From the NCBI GenBank assembly GCA_945878865.1, contig CAMCUD010000020.1:1-64000 (forward strand): DNA of 64,000 bases, written 5' to 3'. Made by a program: the position numbers and the translations under genes. Below the pieces are notes generated by a model. It saw only the letters and a list, made by a program, of their open reading frames with translations, was not told the origin of the DNA and ran no database searches. The stretch comes from Bifidobacterium breve. Lineage in GTDB: Bacteria > Actinomycetota > Thermoleophilia > Solirubrobacterales > Solirubrobacteraceae. Position 1 is the first letter of the stretch, and each line of letters begins with the position of its first letter. Positions 5,535 through 35,363 of the stretch are shown here, piece by piece.

Positions 5535-6755
5535 TCAGCGCAGCCGCGCCGCCGACCACGCGACGACCGGCGGGCCGGCGAACGCGTCGTCGGTCATGTT
5601 GGGATGCGTGCCCAGCGCATACTCGCGGTAGACGAGGTCCGCACCGCGAGCACGCTGCGCGCGGGCGACCTGCCGGGTCAGGGTGATCGGCGCGACCCCG
5701 TCGAGCACGCCGACATCGAGGCGTATCGGGATCCGGCCGACATCCGCCCGGCGCACGTCGTTGGCATCAAGCACGGGATAGAGGAGGTCGCGCAGCTCCC
5801 GCCACCGCGGGCCGGGAATCGCCGCGGGCACCAGGCCCGCCCAGCTGTCGCGCTTGGAGAGCTCAGCCAGGCAGCGCGTCTCGATGTCCGCGAGCAGACC
5901 CGTCGCCCGCGGCCCGAGCCCGCCCTCGCGCAACAGCGCATCGATGTGCGGATCGGTCGTGCCCGCCCCGGCGAGGATGAGCGATCCGAGCGCCGCCAAC
6001 CCGCCGACGACGTCATTGGCAACGGGGATCCGCCGCGCGACGTCCATGATCTCGCGCGCGGCCACCGGCGGGGTGACCGCCGCGGCGCCGCGCAGGTCGA
6101 GCTCGGGCGCCATCGCCGGGCCGTACTGCGCGGTGAAGAGCGACGCAACGCCGCCCTCCGAATGCCCGGACGCGACATAGCGCGCCGAGAGCCGGGGATC
6201 GAGGTCTCGCCCTGCGCGCACCATGTCGACCGTCGCCCGCGCGAGCGAGCGCCCGATGAGATACGGGTGCGGGCCGGGGGTCCCGATCCCCTCGTAGTCG
6301 CTGCGCACGACGGCGATCCCCGCGCGCAGGTAGCGCCGCACGATGTGGTTCGAGCGGATCATCCGCTCCAGCTCGGGGTTGCCCGGGGCCGCCCGGCTGG
6401 GCGCGCAGGTGTCCGCGGCGCCGGTCGTCACGTGGCTCCACGCCGCGACCGGCCACCCGCCCGCCGGCGGGGCGCCGCGCGGGATCACCACCGACCCGGA
6501 GACCGCGATCGGCGTGCCGTCCTGTGCCCGCGAGCGATACAGGACGACGGTGGTCCGCGCGGCGCCCGACACGTCCGCCAGGCCGGTCGCCGGGCGCTTC
6601 CAGATCACCGTGCCCTCTGGACCGGGCACGAGATCTGCGGGTGGCCGGTAGAACGCGTCGCCCTCCGGCCCGTCCGGGATCGTCGCGGCGGACGCGGCGG
6701 ACGGTGCGAGCGCGCAGACCAGCGCGCCCGTCAGGGCCAGGGTGCGACGCAGCAT
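5535..6755 (-). CDS. Secreted lipase of the LIP/secretory lipase family (copy 1)
   Basis: 406 aa alpha/beta-hydrolase. It has a Sec signal peptide (about residues 1-23, ending PSAASA) and the nucleophile elbow GHSEGG with Ser near residue 199. The family hydrolyses esters or lipids outside the cell; the substrate here is not known. A likely acid/histidine region is near the C-terminus (GTHPN). It closely resembles the protein at 8357, sharing GPEGDAFY/GPDGDAFY, WSHVTTG and RSDYEGIGTPGPHPYLIG, so the two are paralogues flanking an M28-like gene. It follows that gene by 10 bp on the same strand. Confidence 0.85.
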   Translation of the reverse strand: MLRRTLALTGALVCALAPSAASAATIPDGPEGDAFYRPPADLVPGPEGTVIWKRPATGLADVSGAARTTVVLYRSRAQDGTPIAVSGSVVIPRGAPPAGGWPVAAWSHVTTGAADTCAPSRAAPGNPELERMIRSNHIVRRYLRAGIAVVRSDYEGIGTPGPHPYLIGRSLARATVDMVRAGRDLDPRLSARYVASGHSEGGVASLFTAQYGPAMAPELDLRGAAAVTPPVAAREIMDVARRIPVANDVVGGLAALGSLILAGAGTTDPHIDALLREGGLGPRATGLLADIETRCLAELSKRDSWAGLVPAAIPGPRWRELRDLLYPVLDANDVRRADVGRIPIRLDVGVLDGVAPITLTRQVARAQRARGADLVYREYALGTHPNMTDDAFAGPPVVAWSAARLR

Positions 6756-6765
6756 GTCGGCCTCC

Positions 6766-8256
6766 TCAGCGCCCGCGACGCATCTGCAGCGGCGTCATGT
6801 CGTCCATGCCGTCGACGACCTCGGTGAACGCCTTCGCGACCGGGCGCAGCTCCTTGACCGCGACCTTGTCCAGCGTGTCAGCCATGTCGTACAGGTAGAT
6901 CGGCCCGCTGATGAAGCTGACGACCGGGATCCCGTTCTCCGGCTTGGCCGTCAGGAACGACGCGTCCGTGGGCATGCCGAGGTTGTCGACCGGCAGCACG
7001 GCGGTGCGCTCTAGGCGGTTGTCGACGATCGCGCGCTCGATGAGCCGCTTCAGGCGGAAGCTGCCGATGCGGAAGACGCCGCGCGGTTCGGGCAGCGTGC
7101 TCATCGTGAGCTTGCCCTGGCGCGTGACGGCCTGCAGGCCGACGTGCTCGAGCGTGACGTTGCTGACGATCTTCAACGGAGCGGTGCCGCTGCGCAGCCA
7201 CTTCTGACGGAAGGCGTCGTGCGCCTGGTAGCCCGTGAAGTGCGAGTCGAACGTCGTGAACATCAGCGTCTTCTTGCGCTCGGACAGCGGGAGCGAGGAG
7301 AACGCCTTCGCCAGCGCGATGACCTCGGCGGTGCCGGTCCCGTCCTCGACGGCGCCCGGCGACAGCGAGTCGTGATGCGACTGGATCATGATCGTGTCGG
7401 TGCTCTGTCCGGGCAGGATCCCGACCACCGTGTTCGTCTGGGCCTCCTGGCGCTCACCCTCCAGGGTGATCGTGGCGCTGCCCTTGCCGCCGGCCGCCTG
7501 GTTGAGGGCGCGGATCCGCGCGCCGTCCGTGCGGGTGACCCACACGCCGGGCATGTTCGCCCGCGCACGCCGGTAGTACTCGTTGAGGTACTTGTTGGAG
7601 TCGAAGTAGTCGCTGAGCACGCCGATGAAGCCGACGGCGCCGCCGTCACGCAGCTGCTTGACCGTCTCGTTGTAGTTCGTGATGTACGGGTTGGCCTGCT
7701 TGAGCGCGACGGGGTCGCGCAGCAGCGTCAGCCGCGGGTCGTAGAGGTAGTCCGCCGCCGCGGCCAGGCCGGCGAGCGGCACCTGGAAGCGCAGGTTGAA
7801 CAGCGCGATCTTGCCGCGGATGTTGCGGCGCGCGACGCTGAGCGCGGCGCCGTCGCCGACATCCACGATCTCAGCGGTCCGTCCGCCCGGGCCCGTGGAG
7901 AAGCGACCCGTCCACGCCGGCTCGGCCGTGAACGAGTGCCAGGACGGGAAGGCGTCGATCGTCTCACCCTGGACCTGGAGACCCCAGCGCTCCGGCGCCC
8001 ACGAGTAGGACGTGGCGTGCTCCTGATGCGTCTCGATGCCGTACTCCTCCAGCCGGCGCTGGACGTAGTCGGCGGCGGCCTTGCCCTCGGGCGTCCCCGT
8101 CCGGCGGGGCCCGATGTCGACGAGGTCCTTCACCGTGCCGAAGATCTCCTCGGTCGAGGGAACCTCAGGTGGCGCGGCGGACACCGGCGCAGCGGAGAAC
8201 AGGGCCACGCCGAACGTCGACGCGAGCAGACAGAGACCAACAGACACACGAGACAT
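6766..8256 (-). CDS. Secreted M28-family peptidase homologue with altered metal site
   Basis: 496 aa. The start MSRVSVGLCLL opens a clear signal peptide (cleavage after about PVSAA); the track ORF adds 47 unsupported codons. A PA-like insert precedes the M28 core. SHHDS near residues 293-297 and GAVEDGTG match the first zinc-ligand region, but the aspartate position reads Glu. The usual catalytic Glu-Glu after the next strand reads FDSHFTG, and the final YH motif reads LYDMADT. It may be a diverged or non-peptidase member. It is in tandem with the lipase at 5535 and divergent from the lipase at 8357. Confidence 0.75.
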   Translation of the reverse strand: MSRVSVGLCLLASTFGVALFSAAPVSAAPPEVPSTEEIFGTVKDLVDIGPRRTGTPEGKAAADYVQRRLEEYGIETHQEHATSYSWAPERWGLQVQGETIDAFPSWHSFTAEPAWTGRFSTGPGGRTAEIVDVGDGAALSVARRNIRGKIALFNLRFQVPLAGLAAAADYLYDPRLTLLRDPVALKQANPYITNYNETVKQLRDGGAVGFIGVLSDYFDSNKYLNEYYRRARANMPGVWVTRTDGARIRALNQAAGGKGSATITLEGERQEAQTNTVVGILPGQSTDTIMIQSHHDSLSPGAVEDGTGTAEVIALAKAFSSLPLSERKKTLMFTTFDSHFTGYQAHDAFRQKWLRSGTAPLKIVSNVTLEHVGLQAVTRQGKLTMSTLPEPRGVFRIGSFRLKRLIERAIVDNRLERTAVLPVDNLGMPTDASFLTAKPENGIPVVSFISGPIYLYDMADTLDKVAVKELRPVAKAFTEVVDGMDDMTPLQMRRGR

Positions 8257-8283
8257 AGGCCGACACACTAGATCTGGGCGCGT

Positions 8284-8329
8284 TGTGCAAGCACCCACGT
8301 TCCGGGCCCCGCGGTTGTGGGTCTGCACA
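8284..8329. promoter_or_regulatory. Interrupted inverted repeat in the divergent M28/lipase promoter region
   Basis: The 100-bp gap between the divergent starts holds two nested perfect arms: TGTGCA with TGCACA outside and ACCCAC with GTGGGT inside, around a GC-rich centre containing GGGCCC. It could be an operator serving both directions. No clear -35/-10 pair was recognised. Confidence 0.4.
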
Positions 8330-8356
8330 TCTGGCGTCGTCCTACGGTCCGACGCC

Positions 8357-9565
8357 ATGTCCCGCCTGCTCGCCCTCGTCCTCGCGGCGCTCGTCACCGC
8401 CCCGGCGTCCGCCTCGGCCGCACCGCCCGTCGGCCCCGACGGCGACGCGTTCTACCACCCGCCCGCCGCCGCCGTTCCAGGACCGGAGGGGTCGATCATC
8501 TGGGCGCGTCCGGCGACGGGGCTGTCAGTCGTGCCCGGGGCGGCGCGCACGACGCTCGTCCTCTACCGCTCACGCGGGGTGACGGGCGCGCCTGTCGCGG
8601 TGTCGGGCACCGTCGTGCTGCCCAGCGGGACCGCGCCCGCCGGCGGCTGGCCCGTCGCGGCGTGGAGCCATGTGACGACCGGCTCGGGCGACGACTGCGC
8701 GCCCAGCCGTGTCACCGCCGACAACCCCGAGCGCCGCAGGCTGCTCGGGGATGCGCAGATCACCAAGCGCCTCATCGCTCAGGGCGTCGCGGTCGTGCGC
8801 AGCGACTACGAGGGCATCGGCACACCCGGACCCCACCCGTATCTCATCGGCGTGTCGCTCGCACGATCGACGGTGAACATGGTCCGAGCCGGCCGAGCGC
8901 TCGAGGACCTCTCGCCCCGGTGGGCGGCCGTCGGGCACTCCGAGGGCGGCGAGGCGTCGATCTTCTCCGCGCAGGAAGGACCGCGCGTCGCGCCGGAACT
9001 CGACCTGCGCGGCGTGGCGGCGCTGACCCCGCCGGTCACGACGAAGGAGTCGCTGCAGCTCGGGCGCCACATCGCGTTCAACGTCAAGGGCGTCGGTGGG
9101 CTGACCGCATTGGGCGCCCTGGTGCTCGGCGGCGTCGCGGCCGCTCATCCCGACATCGCCGCGCTGTACCGCGACGGCGGGCTGAGCCCGCGCGCCAACG
9201 CGCTCATGGGCGATCTCGACACGCGCTGCCTGGAGACCCTCGGCGAACGCGACTCGTGGGGCTCGATCGCCCCCGCGGCCGTCGCCGGCCCGCGGCTGCG
9301 TGAGATGGAGCGGCTCGTCTATCCGATCCTCGACGCGAACAACCCGGCAAACGCGGACACCGGTGACGTGCCCGTCCGCATCGATGCGGGTGACCTCGAC
9401 CTCATCACCCCCGCCGCGACGATCACGGCGGCCGTGCGCCGCATGCGCGCCCGCGGGCTCAACATCACCTACCGCCGCCATCCCTTCTCCAGCCATCCCT
9501 CGATCGTCACCGACCCCGCGCCCGTCCGCGCGGTCACCGACTGGGTGGTCGCGCGGCTGCGGTGA
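8357..9565 (+). CDS. Secreted lipase of the LIP/secretory lipase family (copy 2)
   Basis: 402 aa from ATG 8357 (MSRLLALVLAALVTAPASASA signal-peptide pattern). The upstream track extension overlaps the M28 gene on the other strand and is not needed. The nucleophile elbow GHSEGGEAS places Ser near residue 195. It is a paralogue of the product at 5535 over its whole length. The stop overlaps the glutaminase GTG as GTGA, so the two are probably translated together although one product is exported and the other has no visible signal peptide. Confidence 0.85.
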   Translation: MSRLLALVLAALVTAPASASAAPPVGPDGDAFYHPPAAAVPGPEGSIIWARPATGLSVVPGAARTTLVLYRSRGVTGAPVAVSGTVVLPSGTAPAGGWPVAAWSHVTTGSGDDCAPSRVTADNPERRRLLGDAQITKRLIAQGVAVVRSDYEGIGTPGPHPYLIGVSLARSTVNMVRAGRALEDLSPRWAAVGHSEGGEASIFSAQEGPRVAPELDLRGVAALTPPVTTKESLQLGRHIAFNVKGVGGLTALGALVLGGVAAAHPDIAALYRDGGLSPRANALMGDLDTRCLETLGERDSWGSIAPAAVAGPRLREMERLVYPILDANNPANADTGDVPVRIDAGDLDLITPAATITAAVRRMRARGLNITYRRHPFSSHPSIVTDPAPVRAVTDWVVARLR

Positions 9566-28731: not shown

Positions 28732-28778
28732 GGCGCCAGCGTATTCCGTCCGGGCCCGCTGCTGTGGTTCCTTGCGTC

Positions 28779-30065
28779 ATGGAAGCTGCCACACGTCTCC
28801 CCTTCTCGATGGTCAGCGTCCGCAACGGGCGCCTGATGATCGACGGGCTGCTCGTCGACGACGAGACGCTGGTGCAGCTCGCGGAGGAGAGCGAGGACCC
28901 CGCGCAGCTCGTCCGCGACGCGCTCGTCATCGGCGCCCGCGTCCTCGACCGCGAGCAGGCCGGGACGAACACCGACTTCGTCCGCGCGGAGTTCGAGCGC
29001 TCGGCGCGTGAGCTCAAGGACGAGTTCACCCAGCGGGCCAAGGCGATCGCCGATCGGCTCGACGAGAAGGTCGACGAGACGTTCGGGCCCGAGGACGGCC
29101 ACGTCTCCAAGCTCGTCGCCCGCCACTTCGGCGACGACTCCACCGCGGCCGTGCAGCACAAGGTCCGCAAGGTCCTCGACGACGTCGCCGCGCAGATGCG
29201 CGACGACCTGCGCAAGCAGCTGACGAGCGACAGCGCGGACAACCCGATCGTCGCGATCCAGAAGGCGTCCCTGGGCGTGATGAAGCAGAACGCCGACCAG
29301 CAGAACACCCATCTGCGGACGATGGCGGAGAAGATGGAGGCGCTGCGCGTCGAGCTCGCCCAACTCAAGGCCGAGCGCGAGAAGCTCGAGGAGCTCGACG
29401 CCGAGCGCGACCGCGGCACGGCGAAGGGGCGCACGTACGAAGAGGCGCTGGTCGACGCGCTCGACACGCTCGCCAACGCCCGCGGCGACGTCTGCGAGGG
29501 CGTCGGGGACTTCGGCGGCGAGGGCGGCCGCAAGGGCGACGCCGTCATCGCGATCGACGCGTGCGGCGGGCCCGCCCGAGGCCGGATCGTCTTCGAGGCC
29601 AAGAACCGCCGGCTCTCGAAGAAGGAGGCGCTCGAGGAGCTCGACGGCGCGCTGCGCACGCGCTCGGCCGACTACGCCGTGCTCGTCGTGCCCAGCGACG
29701 AGAAGCTCCCGGCCCGCACCAACCCGCTGCGCGAGTTCAACGGCGACAAGCTCTTCGTCACCTTCGATCCGCAGGACGGCTCGACGCTCGCGCTCGAGGT
29801 GGCCTACGGGCTGGCCCGCGCCCGCGTGCTGCAGGCGCGGTCGGAGACCGACCGCGTGGATCCGGATGCCGTGCGTGCCGAGGTCGAGCGCGCCCAAGGC
29901 GGGATGGACGAGGTCCGGCGCATCAAGACCCAGCTGTCGAACGCCCGCACCGGGATCGACAACGCGCAGGGCATCGTGGAGACCATGGCGACGACGGTCC
30001 GCGGGCATCTCGCGCGGATCGACGAGCTGCTCGCCGCGGGCATCCCGGACGACGACGCGGCGTGA
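28779..30065 (+). CDS. Coiled-coil protein with PD-(D/E)XK nuclease-like core (DUF2130/RmuC-like)
   Basis: 428 aa from ATG 28779 (MEAATRLPFSMVSVRNG). A short N-domain is followed by helical coiled coils (about residues 60-220, MAEKMEALRVELAQLKAEREKL). The core has a GDAVIAI strand (Asp near 253) and RIVFEAKNRR (E-x-K near 271-273), spaced like the PD-(D/E)XK fold of DUF2130 and RmuC proteins. A second coiled coil ends the protein. This suggests a DNA-acting nuclease or a structural relative. The acylphosphatase start overlaps its stop. Confidence 0.72.
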   Translation: MEAATRLPFSMVSVRNGRLMIDGLLVDDETLVQLAEESEDPAQLVRDALVIGARVLDREQAGTNTDFVRAEFERSARELKDEFTQRAKAIADRLDEKVDETFGPEDGHVSKLVARHFGDDSTAAVQHKVRKVLDDVAAQMRDDLRKQLTSDSADNPIVAIQKASLGVMKQNADQQNTHLRTMAEKMEALRVELAQLKAEREKLEELDAERDRGTAKGRTYEEALVDALDTLANARGDVCEGVGDFGGEGGRKGDAVIAIDACGGPARGRIVFEAKNRRLSKKEALEELDGALRTRSADYAVLVVPSDEKLPARTNPLREFNGDKLFVTFDPQDGSTLALEVAYGLARARVLQARSETDRVDPDAVRAEVERAQGGMDEVRRIKTQLSNARTGIDNAQGIVETMATTVRGHLARIDELLAAGIPDDDAA

Positions 30066-30345: not shown

Positions 30346-30373
30346 GACGTCCCCCGTATTCGGGGAGAACGTC
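30346..30373. terminator. Hairpin in the convergent acyP/macrodomain gap
   Basis: GACGT and ACGTC form an outer stem around an inner CCCCG/CGGGG stem with loop TATT. It fills the only convergent gap of any size in the window and could end transcription from both sides. No T-tract of note. Confidence 0.4.
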
Positions 30374-30869
30374 AGGTGATGAGCTCGAACGCGAGCTGCG
30401 CGTGCCGGCCGCGGACGGCGATCGTGACGTGACCGAGCCCCGAGCCGGCGGCGAGGTGGTCCCGGATGGCGTGCACCATGAGCTCGGCGGCGCGGTCGAC
30501 CGGGAACCCGCCGACGCCGGTGCCGAACGCCGGCAGCGCGACCGAGCGGCACCCGAGCTCGTCGGCGACGCGCAACGCGGACGCCGTGGCGTCGGCGATG
30601 GCCTCGGCGCTCGTCGGGCCGCCCGGCTCCATCGTCGCCGCATGGATGACCCAGCGGCACGGCAGCTCACCCGCCGTGGTGGCGACCGCCCCGCCCAGGT
30701 CGATCGGCGCCCGTTCGCGGCTCTCCCGCTCGAGCTCCGGCCCCGCCGCGCGCGCGATCGCGCCCGCCACGCCGCCACCGTGCAGGAGGTGCGTGTTCGC
30801 CGCGTTGGCGATCGCGTCGACCTCGAGCGTCGTGATGTCGCAGTCCCGGACGTCCACCGTGGCGAGCAT
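30372..30869 (-). CDS. Macrodomain protein (ADP-ribose binding/hydrolysing)
   Basis: 165 aa, a complete stand-alone macrodomain. Ligand loops are clear: AIANAANTHLLHGGGVAGAIARAAG and ALPAFGTGVGGFP. Relatives deacetylate O-acetyl-ADP-ribose or remove ADP-ribose from Asp/Glu. IANAANTHLLHGGGVA is of the MacroD-like type, which supports enzymatic activity. It is transcribed in the same direction as the ceramidase-like operon, 96 bp further on, with a hairpin between them. Confidence 0.9.
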   Translation of the reverse strand: MLATVDVRDCDITTLEVDAIANAANTHLLHGGGVAGAIARAAGPELERESRERAPIDLGGAVATTAGELPCRWVIHAATMEPGGPTSAEAIADATASALRVADELGCRSVALPAFGTGVGGFPVDRAAELMVHAIRDHLAAGSGLGHVTIAVRGRHAQLAFELIT

Positions 30870-30965: not shown

Positions 30966-33169
30966 TCAGCGCAGCGTGACGGGCTCCCCGTTCGTGTTGC
31001 CGTCACCATCGACGGCCCCACCCGCGGCCACGGCGACCCTCTCCGCGCCGCCGGCATCGATCTCGGCCACCCCGCCGGAGATCGGCACCTTCGTCGCCAC
31101 GCCGTCCACGGTGAACGTCACCGTCCCGCCGTCCACGGTGTCGGGTCGGGCCAGCAGGTCGACGTTCTCTCGCGCGGCCGGATAGCCGACCCGCACGGCC
31201 GTCCGGCCCGGCACCGGCGTGACCTTCAGGCTCGTCGCGGGAACGACGTCGAACGGCGTGGACTGCAACCGGTAGCGGGTCGCGGTGACGACCAGGCGGT
31301 ACGTCCCGGCCGGCGTGTCCCGCGCGACCTCCCAGGAGACGTCGTAGCGCCCGCCCTTGCCGGTGCGCCACAGCATCGCCAGGCCGAGATCGCTGTCGAC
31401 CTCCACCCAGTCGCCGTCGACCTTGCGCTCGGCGCGGATGAACGCCGAGCCGACAGGCCGGTCCGCGCCGGCCTCCCCGCCCTTCCATCCGAGCGTGGCG
31501 TGGCCGAGCCGCGGCACCGTGGCGGGGGCGTCGGCGACGACCTGGCCCGATGCCGCGCCCTCGGGGTACGGCGCGCCGTCCGGGACGACGCCGCGCTTGG
31601 CGTCATACCAACGCGGCGCCGGGGCCGCCTGGCCGCGGACCAGCCGGGACGCGAGGTCGCGCAGCGACTCCTTGAGGAGGTTCAGCTCCAGCCGGCCGTA
31701 GACCGTCGAGCCCCCCTCGTAGTGCTGCATGTCGTATTCCTCGGGCGTGGTGATGTAGTTGATGTACTCGTTGGTCAGGCCCGAGATCACGACCTTCCTG
31801 ACGCCCGCCGCCGATGAGGCCAGCAGGACGTCGCGCTTGACGCGCGCGCCCGCCTCCTTCGTCGGCTCGCCCGGCAGCGACGCGATCATCCGGTCACCGA
31901 CCCGCACGACCATGAGCGGCACCGACTTGGGGAACGACCCGACCGGCACGATGACCTTGTGCCAGTGCCCGGGGTACAGCGTCCGGTCGCTCATCACGCC
32001 CTCGTAGGACTGCTTCGTGACGTCGTAGAGCGGCCCGCGGCCCTCCTCCGAGCCGGTGAGGAACGGCAGCCCGGGGAACGCGCGGTCGGCGACGCGGCCC
32101 CCCTCCACCCACTGGCCGCAGAAGCACGTCTGCGTCCAGCGCACGTCGACGGGCAGCTCCGACGACATCGCCGCGCCCGCCTGCCGCCACGCCGCCAGCA
32201 TCGACTGCGCCTCAGCCGCGCCGACCTCGTTCGCGCCGGCCGGGCCGGTGTGGTCGAGCCCGGCGGACTGGTCGCCCTCGTCGCCGTTGCCGTAGACGTT
32301 GACCACCGGCTCGCCGTCGGGGACGCCGCCCTCCTTGCGGACCTCGCGCTCGAAGACCCGGGTCGCGGTGGCGTGGTGGTCGCCGCTGTACGCGCGGATC
32401 TCCGACTTCACGACCGTCCCGTGGTTGGCGAACTGCGACCACGCGCCGATGGGGACACGCCGGCCGTCGACGATCTGATCGACGCGCAGCACGTCGACGG
32501 ACGGGTCGATCGTGTGCGTCGCCCCGTCGGGGTCGTCGGCCGGGCTGCCCTGCCCGGGCCGCTTCTTGATGCCGTGGTCGTTGAGGTGCGCCTCGAGGCT
32601 GCGGTTGCGCGTCACCCCGAGGAGCTCCTGCTCGCCCCACCCCGCCACAGCCGGCTTGAGGTCGTCGTCGGCTTGCCGGATCGCCGCGGCGATCTGGGTG
32701 ACGAGGAACGTGTAGAGCTGGCGGTCGGCCTTGACCGGATCGAGCAGCAGGCTCAGCGAGCCGATGTCGGTCAGCAGCATCGTCGCGTTCGGCGCGGCGG
32801 TGTTGAGCGTCGCGTAGTTCGAGAAGCCGCCCGGGCCGGCGTGCGTGTGCGTCGCGCCCATGAGGACGTTGGCGGTCGTGAAGCCCCGGTCGGCGACGGC
32901 CTCGGCGACATGCTGCTGCAGCCCGCCGGGGACCATGAAGAGCTCGACGGCGACGAGCGCCACCTTCCTGCCACCCTGCTCGAGGACGAGCGCCTTGGCC
33001 GACAGCCGGCTCTGCTGGCCCTCGGCGAGACGGTCGGCACGCGTCCAGCCGCCGAGGAAGTAGCCGGTCTTCGGCGGCGTGATGTCCGTCTGCGCGGCGC
33101 CGGCGCGGCGACGACGCCGAGCGCCGCCGCCGCGCCGATGAGCGCCGCAACCCCCCACCCCACGCGCAT
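30966..33169 (-). CDS. Neutral-ceramidase-like secreted hydrolase with an apparent frameshift after the signal peptide
   Basis: The main frame (track ORF from 33158) matches the neutral ceramidase N-terminal family: QTDITPPKTGYFLGG, GATHTHAGPGGFSNY, then a C-terminal beta-sandwich. Its first 20 residues (MGGCGAHRRGGGARRRRR) look unlike a start. In the neighbouring frame an ATG at 33169, overlapping the amine oxidase stop as TGATG, gives MRVGWGVAALIGAAAALGVV, a good signal peptide. A one-base change between about 33092 and 33108 would join them. The family's nucleophile motif HxTS reads HGTV here, so ceramide hydrolysis is doubtful. Confidence 0.75.
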
Positions 33170-34650
33170 CAGAGCGCGGCCTGCACTTCGGCGGCCACCG
33201 TCTTGCCGGCGCGGACCGCGCCGTCCATGTAGCCCGACCAGATCGTCGCGGTCTCCGTGCAGGCGAAGTGCAGGTCGCCTTCGGGCCGGCGCAGCGCGTC
33301 CTTGTACCCGGTGATCGTGCCGGGCTGCGGCACGGAGACCGGGCAGCCGCGGTGCCACTCCTGGGCGTCCATGTTGTAGTCGAGGTACTGCCGCGGGCTC
33401 AGAGCCTCCGGGCCGAACCACTCGGCGAACTGCGCGAGGACCTTCGCCCGGCGGTCCTCGTAGGACCAGAAGCTCCAGTCGCGCGCGTCCTGACCGTCCA
33501 CGAAGCCCATCATCACGCCGGGCTTCCCGCTCGCCGGGGAGATGTCGAACGTGATCTTCACGGGGCCGATGTCGCTCGTGGCCTGGCCGGTCAAGCCCTT
33601 CGCGCGCCACCACGGCGTGTCGTAGACCGCGACGGCCTTGCCGACCGAACCCATCGGCGAGTGCTGGCAGATCTGGTCCTTCGTCGGTGAGAGCAGCGGC
33701 TCGTAGGAGATCCGGGGGATCATCGGCGGCGGCACCGCGACGATCACCTTCTTGGCCACGACGGTGACCCCGTCCGCGTAGACGGTCGTGCGCCCGTCCT
33801 TCGTGACGACCCGCCGCGCCGGGGACGAGTAGGTGACGGCGCCCGTGCCGAGCTGTTCGGCGACCCGCTCGCAGATGATCTGGCTGCCGCCGTCGAACTG
33901 TGACTCCTGCGCGCCCGCGTTGACGTTGAGGAGATTCTGGATCGTCCCGGCCGAGCGGACGTAGAAGATGAGGTGCAGCGCCGAGACCTCCCACGGCTCG
34001 ACGCTGAACAGCGCCGGCACCGCGAGGTCCAGCAGCTTCTGCGACATGAGCTTCGTCGCGTTCTGGCGGATCCACGTGTGCGCGGTGATCTTGTCGAGCT
34101 CGGCCGCCATCGGGTGCGTCCACGGCGTCGCCGGGTCCATGGAGCCCGCGAGCCCGTTCAGGCGCGACATCGCGCGGCTGACCTCCAGGAGCGAGCCGAC
34201 GTCGGCCTGCGGCACCGTGCCGGCATACGTCTTGCGCTGGCCGTTGAAGAACTGGACGTTCTTGCCGCTGTTCCAGGTCTTGTACGTCCCGACGCCGACG
34301 TCCTTGGCGAGCGCGAGGATCTCGGTCTGTTGCGGACCGACGAACGTCGCGCCCCAGTTCACCGGGGTGCCGTCGTCGAGGTTGACCGTCCACACGCGGC
34401 CGCCGGGCCGGTCGTCGGCCTCGACGACGTGGACGGACTTCCCGGCGCTCTTCAGCGCGCGGGCGGCGTTCAGGCCGGTCAGGCCCGCGCCGATGATCGC
34501 GACGTCGACCTCCTTCGTCTCCGACGGGGTCGAGACGGGTGCTTCATCTGGGCCGGCCGCGGACGCGACTCCGGGGACGGCGGCGGTGAGCGCACCTGCG
34601 CCTGCGGTGGCGAGCAGGGAGCGGCGCGAGACGCGAAGCGAGTCGGACAT
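33169..34650 (-). CDS. Tat-exported flavin amine oxidase
   Basis: 493 aa. A twin-arginine signal opens the protein (SRRSLLATAGAGALTAAV). The FAD-binding Rossmann motif is VAIIGAGLTGLNAARAL, followed by ADDRPGGRVWT. The C-terminal flavin-binding segment is WSGYMDGAVRAGKTVA. It is the monoamine-oxidase family, which oxidises primary amines to aldehydes, ammonia and hydrogen peroxide. The Tat signal puts it outside the membrane, already folded with FAD. It forms an operon with the ceramidase-like gene (TGATG overlap) and is divergent from a TetR regulator across a palindromic operator candidate. Confidence 0.88.
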   Translation of the reverse strand: MSDSLRVSRRSLLATAGAGALTAAVPGVASAAGPDEAPVSTPSETKEVDVAIIGAGLTGLNAARALKSAGKSVHVVEADDRPGGRVWTVNLDDGTPVNWGATFVGPQQTEILALAKDVGVGTYKTWNSGKNVQFFNGQRKTYAGTVPQADVGSLLEVSRAMSRLNGLAGSMDPATPWTHPMAAELDKITAHTWIRQNATKLMSQKLLDLAVPALFSVEPWEVSALHLIFYVRSAGTIQNLLNVNAGAQESQFDGGSQIICERVAEQLGTGAVTYSSPARRVVTKDGRTTVYADGVTVVAKKVIVAVPPPMIPRISYEPLLSPTKDQICQHSPMGSVGKAVAVYDTPWWRAKGLTGQATSDIGPVKITFDISPASGKPGVMMGFVDGQDARDWSFWSYEDRRAKVLAQFAEWFGPEALSPRQYLDYNMDAQEWHRGCPVSVPQPGTITGYKDALRRPEGDLHFACTETATIWSGYMDGAVRAGKTVAAEVQAAL

Positions 34651-34670
34651 AGCGCATTCCTACCGAGGTC

Positions 34671-34686
34671 TTGGACACTTGTCCAA
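34671..34686. promoter_or_regulatory. Palindromic operator candidate for the TetR regulator
   Basis: TTGGACA-CT-TGTCCAA, perfect 7-bp arms around 2 bp, lies in the 83-bp gap between the divergent amine oxidase and tetR genes. The left arm overlaps a -35-like TTGGAC for the minus-strand operon, whose ATG lies about 20 bp further on. Position and symmetry fit a TetR dimer site. Confidence 0.65.
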
Positions 34687-34733
34687 TGATTTTGTGCAGC
34701 CGGTCGACCCGACCTGTGTGATGTGATGAGGTC

Positions 34734-35363
34734 GTGACGCAACCCGGGGACACTGGCGTCGAGGCCGAGCCGCGCCGCAATGCGCGCGGCGCCGCGCGAC
34801 GCCAGGCCGTCATCGACGCCGCGCTGCGCGTCGTCGGAGAGAAGGGGATCGCCGGCGTCACGCATCGCGCGGTCGCCGCCGAGGCCGGCATCACCCCCGG
34901 GCTCACCACGTACTACTTCCCGACCGTCGACTCCCTGCTCGAGGCGACGCTCGGCGGGTTCGTCGAAGAGGAGCTCGCCCGGCTGCAGCAGGCCATGGCG
35001 GTGCTCGAGGAGACGGGCCCGGACGCCGATCGCGGCGCGGTGCTCGGGGCGGTCTTCCAGGCCGTCGCCGTCGAGCCTGAGCAGCAGGTCGCGCAGTTCG
35101 AGCTCTATCTCGAGTCTGCACGCCGCCCCGGGCTGCGCAAGGTCGCGCGCGACTGCCTGCTCGGCTACGCCGCGCTGGCGCGCCTGGCGCTCACGCGCCT
35201 GGGCTCCGATCGCGCCGACGAGGGGTCACGCGCGTTCGTGGCGCTCCTCGACGGCATCGCGCTGCAGCAGATCGTCGACCCCGACCCGTCCTTCATCGAG
35301 CGGGTCGCACTGCCCGCGGTACTCGCGGTCCTCGAGACATACGCGCCCGAGGACCGGGGCTAG
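34734..35363 (+). CDS. TetR-family transcriptional repressor
   Basis: 209 aa, GTG start. The N-terminal HTH is at about residues 22-70 (RRQAVIDAALRVVGEKGIAGVTHRAVAAEAGITPGLTTYYFPTV pattern). The C-terminal ligand domain is all-helical. It is probably the local repressor of the divergent amine oxidase/ceramidase-like operon through the palindrome at 34671. The ligand is unknown; an amine or long-chain base is a guess from the neighbours. The stop overlaps that of the sepIVA-like gene (CTAG). Confidence 0.88.
   Translation: MTQPGDTGVEAEPRRNARGAARRQAVIDAALRVVGEKGIAGVTHRAVAAEAGITPGLTTYYFPTVDSLLEATLGGFVEEELARLQQAMAVLEETGPDADRGAVLGAVFQAVAVEPEQQVAQFELYLESARRPGLRKVARDCLLGYAALARLALTRLGSDRADEGSRAFVALLDGIALQQIVDPDPSFIERVALPAVLAVLETYAPEDRG

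What the first reader, a model, noticed from the sequence alone, without database searches (positions are those of the whole stretch)
30966..34733. TetR-controlled extracytoplasmic amine oxidase plus ceramidase-like hydrolase
A Tat-exported flavin amine oxidase and a secreted neutral-ceramidase-like hydrolase share an operon (TGATG overlap), divergent from a TetR gene across a perfect palindrome. A hydrolase that frees an amine from an amide, followed by amine oxidation outside the cell, would be a coherent two-step route for sphingoid or other N-acyl amines. I do not know of a described system with this pairing.
Basis: inference. Interest (0 to 1): 0.6.

Follow-up and report, generated by a model that had tools for sequence, protein, structure and literature searches.

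The report
Predicted extracellular sphingolipid-degrading operon and regulon
In a group of soil actinobacteria, a secreted flavin amine oxidase and a ceramidase-like enzyme sit in one operon behind a conserved repressor-site-like palindrome, and the only other near-copy of that palindrome in this genome lies in front of an endoglycoceramidase-like gene, which suggests a sugar-off, fatty-acid-off, amine-off route for sphingolipids outside the cell.

Summary
The genes are real and the pairing is conserved. The Tat-type flavin amine oxidase (MAO, 33169-34650 -) and neutral-ceramidase-like hydrolase (CER, 30966-33158 -) lie divergent from a TetR gene across TTGGACA-CT-TGTCCAA (34671-34686). One detail fails: the ATG of the TGATG overlap, and the signal peptide it starts, is one base out of frame with the hydrolase in this assembly; both congeners have it in frame. 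All three Svornostia genomes share the operon. A MAO gene also lies within 10 kb of CER in three other genera (4 of 16, expected 0.22), and MAO-CER overlap as here in a second genus. In this genome the only other near-exact operator copy lies 13 bp upstream of an endoglycoceramidase-like GH5 gene (EGC). In two further genera MAO neighbours an EGC homologue. MAOs linked to CER or EGC all have Pro where MAOs usually have an aromatic-cage Tyr. Best reading (0.5): an extracytoplasmic route from glycosphingolipid to ceramide to sphingoid base to oxidised base, with the TetR protein as likely regulator; analogous to the Pseudomonas SphR regulon but built from other enzymes. No substrate or TetR binding is shown. 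New variant of a known kind.

The parts
33169..34650 (-). Flavin monoamine oxidase (493 aa) with twin-arginine-type N-terminus; FAD motif GAGLTG, covalent-flavin-type Cys436, N5-site Lys338, aromatic cage Pro437/Tyr474
   Evidence: PF01593 208 bits; best PDB relatives monoamine oxidase 8p84 (2e-87) and putrescine oxidase 2yg7; residues
30966..33158 (-). Neutral-ceramidase-like zinc hydrolase (730 aa from GTG 33158; conserved mature part from about 33107), no in-frame signal peptide in this assembly
   Evidence: PF04734 194 bits; fold match 2zws/4wgk at E 1e-36/5e-34; zinc ligands and Ser conserved
33101..33172 (-). ATG of the TGATG overlap plus a hydrophobic leader out of frame with the hydrolase: one-base frame defect (real indel or assembly error)
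   Evidence: Sequence; frame comparison with G001 and G002 where the leader is in frame
34671..34686 (.). Palindromic putative TetR operator TTGGACA-CT-TGTCCAA, overlapping a possible -35 of the MAO promoter
34734..35363 (+). TetR-family regulator (209 aa), BetI-type C-terminal domain, probable repressor
   Evidence: PF00440, PF17940, PF13977; TIGR03384 64 bits, below its 201-bit cut-off; orthologues 75-77% at the same place in both congeners

Best explanation
A small regulon for breaking down sphingolipids (or very similar N-acylated long-chain amino-alcohols) outside the cytoplasm. The divergent TetR protein is thought to bind the palindrome and repress the MAO-CER operon, itself, and in this genome an endoglycoceramidase-like gene on another contig, until an inducer (perhaps the free sphingoid base) arrives. 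The glycosidase would remove the sugar head, the ceramidase-like zinc hydrolase would cut the amide, and the Tat-exported flavin amine oxidase would oxidise the freed amine to a ketone or aldehyde with release of ammonia and H2O2, removing a toxic base and making it usable. Shown by sequence: gene order, conserved pairing, conserved operator sequence, second operator copy at the EGC-like gene, active-site residues, export signals (for the hydrolase: in relatives). Inferred: that this TetR binds either site, the substrates, the order of steps, the inducer, the ketone product.
For: Operon MAO-CER with divergent TetR in all three Svornostia genomes. MAO stop overlapping the CER start in a second genus (g19: G037 L174, G020 L058) and MAO within 10 kb in g42 and g52; 4 of 16 CER genera, expected 0.22, P 8e-5; without the window genus P 1.4e-3. 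Operator conserved; at one mismatch G000 has one other site in 4.96 Mb, 13 bp before a GH5 gene whose nearest solved relatives are endoglycoceramidases (5ccu, 3e-65), with similar -35/operator/-10 spacing (read by eye). MAO next to EGC in G005 (two near-identical loci) and G088. EGC and CER co-occur: 10 of 19 EGC genomes against 25 of 121, p 7e-4. All 10 CER/EGC-linked MAOs have Pro at the cage-Tyr position; 24 of 35 others do not, p 1e-4, not corrected for kinship. CER keeps zinc ligands, Ser and fold. Precedents: the SphR regulon (PMC3900636, PMC5150637, PMC11893366) and an FAD monoamine oxidase that turns the primary amine of fumonisin, a sphinganine analogue, into a ketone (PMC9415688; PMC10746191).
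Against: No substrate tested. TetR binding to the operator not shown; about 112 first-look TetR candidates exist in G000. EGC is absent from both congeners, whose other operator-like sites lie before a GAF gene, a secreted unknown protein and a lipase. Many CER genes have no MAO nearby. MAO's most regular partner is a secreted SMP-30-like protein (12 of 13 genomes with that gene), which the model does not explain. CER has GDQSAG where ceramidases have GD[MV]SPN. Leader out of frame here.
Confidence: 0.5

Rival explanations
1. The hydrolase is an N-acyl-amine amidase of another kind (N-acylethanolamines, acylated amino acids, aminolipids of other bacteria) and the MAO oxidises the released small amine; sphingolipids are not the substrate.
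For: CER is a clade of its own, about 30% identical to ceramidases of other phyla, 158 bits against the NCBIfam ceramidase cut-off of 1200, with altered Ser motif and a CFCG motif of its own. MAO's best PDB relatives are monoamine and putrescine oxidases; the regulator resembles BetI, a choline sensor.
Against: The EGC links and the second operator copy have no reason under this reading. The diamine-recognising Glu of putrescine oxidase (Glu324, identified from my own knowledge) is Ile366 here.
Confidence: 0.27
2. MAO and CER are co-regulated members of a general secreted-lipid or amine scavenging regulon but do not act in one pathway.
For: Operator-like sites before a class-2 lipase, a GAF gene and a secreted unknown protein in the congeners; most CER loci lack MAO and CER neighbours vary; SMP-30-like partner of MAO in genomes without CER linkage.
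Against: Repeated MAO-CER and MAO-EGC linkage in separate MAO clades and the cage change that goes with it.
Confidence: 0.15
3. Chance neighbours; the operator at EGC is coincidence or belongs to another TetR, and the frame defect means the hydrolase is decaying in this strain.
For: Frame defect at the leader; EGC absent in congeners; many TetR genes in the genome.
Against: Conserved operon in three species with dN/dS about 0.26-0.32 for CER in comparisons with the window gene; linkage statistics.
Confidence: 0.08

Closest known systems
Pseudomonas aeruginosa SphR regulon: cerN ceramidase, sphBCD, sphA (PMC3900636, PMC5150637, PMC11893366)
   Same: A regulator couples a secreted neutral ceramidase with a Tat-exported flavin oxidoreductase (SphC) needed for sphingosine metabolism; sphingosine is the inducer there.
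   Different: There SphC is described as an FMN-linked / lactone-oxidase-type oxidoreductase with a cytochrome c partner, and SphR works with sphingosine to induce its targets. Here the oxidase is of the monoamine-oxidase family, the regulator is TetR family (probable repressor), no cytochrome partner was seen, and an endoglycoceramidase-like gene carries a copy of the operator.
Neutral ceramidase family (PDB 2zws, 2zxc, 4wgk; PF04734; NF041649)
   Same: Fold, zinc ligands, Ser, NRS and Tyr motifs.
   Different: Separate subfamily seen mostly in Thermoleophilia and some 'Frankiales' MAGs, GDQSAG for GD[MV]SPN, extra CFCG motif, about 30% identity.
Flavin monoamine oxidases / putrescine oxidase (8p84, 2yg7, MAO-A/B)
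   Same: Fold family, FAD motif, Lys, Cys of the covalent-flavin type.
   Different: Exported; Pro437 replaces the first aromatic-cage Tyr; the putrescine-recognising Glu is Ile.
Fumonisin amine oxidase AnFAO (PMC9415688)
   Same: FAD monoamine oxidase acting on a primary amine of a sphinganine analogue, giving an imine that hydrolyses to a ketone.
Endoglycoceramidase I (5ccu) and GH5 endoglycosylceramidases (PMC3526467)
   Same: Closest solved relatives of the gene behind the second operator.
   Different: That gene lies on another contig (G000:C12), is absent in congeners, and its activity is unknown.

Membership tests
Neutral ceramidase | Pfam PF04734 match and neutral-ceramidase fold | tested here: met
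   193.7 bits, cut-off 32.1; Foldseek 2zws E 9.8e-37, TM 0.64/0.72 on a model of mean pLDDT 72
Neutral ceramidase | Zinc ligands His97, His204, Glu411, Tyr448 (Pseudomonas numbering from my own knowledge) | tested here: met
   All aligned to identical residues
Neutral ceramidase | Ser motif GD[MV]SPN | tested here: not met
   GDQSAG: Ser kept, Pro-Asn replaced
Neutral ceramidase | NCBIfam NF041649 equivalog cut-off (1200 bits) | tested here: not met
   158.3 bits
Neutral ceramidase | Hydrolysis of ceramide | not testable with these tools
   No assay
Flavin monoamine oxidase | PF01593, FAD GxGxxG, N5-site Lys, covalent-flavin Cys | tested here: met
Flavin monoamine oxidase | Two-Tyr aromatic cage | tested here: not met
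   Pro437 / Tyr474
SphR-type sphingosine regulon | Ceramidase co-regulated with an exported flavin oxidase by a sphingosine-responsive regulator | tested here: inconclusive
   Co-operon and shared operator sequence seen; response to sphingosine not testable
TetR repressor with adjacent operator | HTH domain, divergent gene, conserved palindrome in the shared promoter region | tested here: met
TetR repressor with adjacent operator | Binding of this protein to the palindrome | not testable with these tools
   No binding assay

The most novel reading that the evidence does not exclude
A previously undescribed subfamily of exported monoamine oxidases with an opened aromatic cage (Tyr to Pro) that oxidises sphingoid bases at the secondary-carbon amine, as the third step of a co-regulated extracellular glycosphingolipid-degrading route in Thermoleophilia.
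Probability: 0.35. Interest if true: 0.7.

Novelty: new variant of a known kind. Interest (0 to 1): 0.52.

Why it matters
It would give Thermoleophilia, a mostly uncultured soil class, a route to sphingolipids from plants, fungi or other bacteria, and a testable enzyme group: oxidases linked to ceramidase-like or endoglycoceramidase-like genes differ from most of their unlinked kin at one active-site position. An oxidase for sphingoid bases could also bear on removal of sphinganine-like mycotoxins (fumonisins are sphinganine analogues, PMC10746191). My full-text searches found no paper that pairs a ceramidase with an amine oxidase in bacteria, but they cover open-licence papers only.

Tried and rejected
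A first MAO tree used wrong reading frames for several rows and was discarded. Plasmid records gave only MAOs under 60% identity and nothing on CER. Putrescine oxidase as the identity of MAO: rejected for the missing Glu. The class II aldolase, PfkB kinase, rhodanese, acyl-CoA carboxylase, GH10 and helicase neighbours are lineage-specific and were not taken as parts. In the flanks (up to 10 kb) of the more distant ceramidase relatives (L112-L168, about 30% identity) a tblastn with the window MAO gave no hit. A strict operator scan in 10 genomes outside the genus found one site, in G022, beside what look like branched-chain amino-acid transport genes; not linked to this system.

Full report
1. 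What is there. The window is the first 64 kb of contig C20 of a 4.96-Mb genome; by gene order and identity it is a congener of Svornostia abyssi J379 (Baekduiaceae, Solirubrobacterales). On the minus strand lie MAO (33169-34650) and CER (30966-33158); TetR is divergent at 34734-35363. The spacer holds TTGGACA-CT-TGTCCAA at 34671-34686; arms this long arise in 1.6% of shuffles of the spacer, but the site is also conserved in two congeners with one mismatch, which is the stronger argument.

2. Correction. The leader is clearly hydrophobic in its own frame, so it was probably coding recently. In G001 and G002 it is in frame. This is either an assembly error or a recent loss; CER evolves under constraint (dN/dS about 0.26-0.32 in comparisons with the window gene, and similar amino-acid identity to MAO and TetR).

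3. What the proteins are. CER has the neutral-ceramidase fold and its zinc ligands and Ser, but belongs to a subfamily seen mostly in Thermoleophilia (24 of 399 class genomes) with some MAGs labelled Frankiales, and its similarity falls to about 30% for ceramidases elsewhere. It carries GDQSAG for GD[MV]SPN and a CFCG motif. MAO has all FAD features, a Tat-type N-terminus, Cys436 and Lys338, but Pro437 where the first cage Tyr is expected.

4. Is the pairing more than local? Neighbourhoods of CER genes in relatives show MAO-CER in Svornostia (3 of 3 genomes), MAO-CER with overlapping stop and start in genus g19 (G020, G037; not in G051), and MAO within 10 kb in g42 (G100) and g52 (G402). Against the number of MAO genes in these genomes, 0.22 genera of 16 were expected and 4 seen (P 8e-5; 1.4e-3 with the window genus left out). 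The tree puts linked MAOs in two clades, each with both CER-linked and EGC-linked members; none fall in the large 19-row clade, whose members mostly start without an export signal.

5. The link to glycosphingolipids. A genome scan for the operator with one mismatch gave one other site in G000, C12:5995-6010, 13 bp before a secreted GH5 protein. Its best solved relatives are endoglycoceramidases (5ccu 3e-65, 2osw 1e-26). Read by eye, both promoters have TTGGAC about 18 bp from a -10-like hexamer. Homologues of this EGC lie next to MAO in G005 (divergent, two near-identical loci) and G088 (convergent, with a MAO-SMP-30-TetR run). In family f2 the same aldolase-kinase-MAO block stands next to CER in two genomes and next to EGC in a third. 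EGC and CER co-occur in genomes. That TetR binds either site is inferred from position and conservation only.

6. A residue that goes with the linkage. All ten CER/EGC-linked MAOs and all five checked SMP-30-linked ones have Pro after the flavin-Cys position; 24 of the 30 other rows have Tyr (p 1e-4 for CER/EGC alone, p 1.6e-7 with SMP-30). Kinship inflates these numbers: they rest on two clades. The two g19 MAOs also have Gly for Cys and Phe for the second cage Tyr.

7. Mechanism. Steps inferred: EGC removes sugar, CER deacylates, MAO oxidises the freed amine outside the cytoplasm, and TetR senses a product. Precedents: the SphR regulon, where a ceramidase and a Tat-exported oxidoreductase are induced by sphingosine (PMC3900636, PMC5150637, PMC11893366), and fumonisin amine oxidase (PMC9415688). 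So the logic is known; the enzymes, regulator and added glycosidase are new for such a system as far as my open-licence literature searches show.

8. What does not fit. EGC is missing in both congeners, where other operator-like sites lie before a lipase, a GAF gene and a secreted unknown protein. Most CER genes lack MAO. MAO's most regular neighbour is a secreted SMP-30-like protein whose role is unknown. No activity is shown.

Noticed in passing
window 33101-33172: One-base frame defect between the leader started by the TGATG ATG and the hydrolase frame; congeners are in frame.
   Followed up: partly
L208 (G000:C12) 5995-7504: Second copy of the operator-like palindrome 13 bp before a secreted endoglycoceramidase-like GH5 gene.
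   Followed up: yes
L233 8319-9659, L234 7970-9340, L235 6818-7858, L058 6320-7738: Secreted SMP-30-like protein adjacent to, or in the same operon as, this MAO group in 12 of 13 genomes that have it; role unknown.
   Followed up: partly
L201, L202, L204, L264, L265 (site at 1501 in each): Further TTGGAC-N4-GTCCAA sites in the congeners before a GAF gene, a class-2 lipase and a secreted unknown protein: possible wider regulon.
   Followed up: partly
L233 and L234 (G005): Two near-identical copies of an EGC/MAO/SMP-30 locus on separate contigs: duplication or mixed strains in the assembly.
   Followed up: no
L250 (G000:C18) 7011-8504: Second endoglycoceramidase-like gene (36-38% identical), behind a gene whose N-terminus looks like a sulfatase, without the operator.
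   Followed up: no
window 30372-30869 and 28764-30065: Macro-domain gene and a DUF2130 gene downstream, kept in the same order in both congeners.
   Followed up: no
L051 5435-8536, L169 2921-7478, L235 3571-6779: Class II aldolase and PfkB kinase pair beside MAO in family f2; function unknown.
   Followed up: partly
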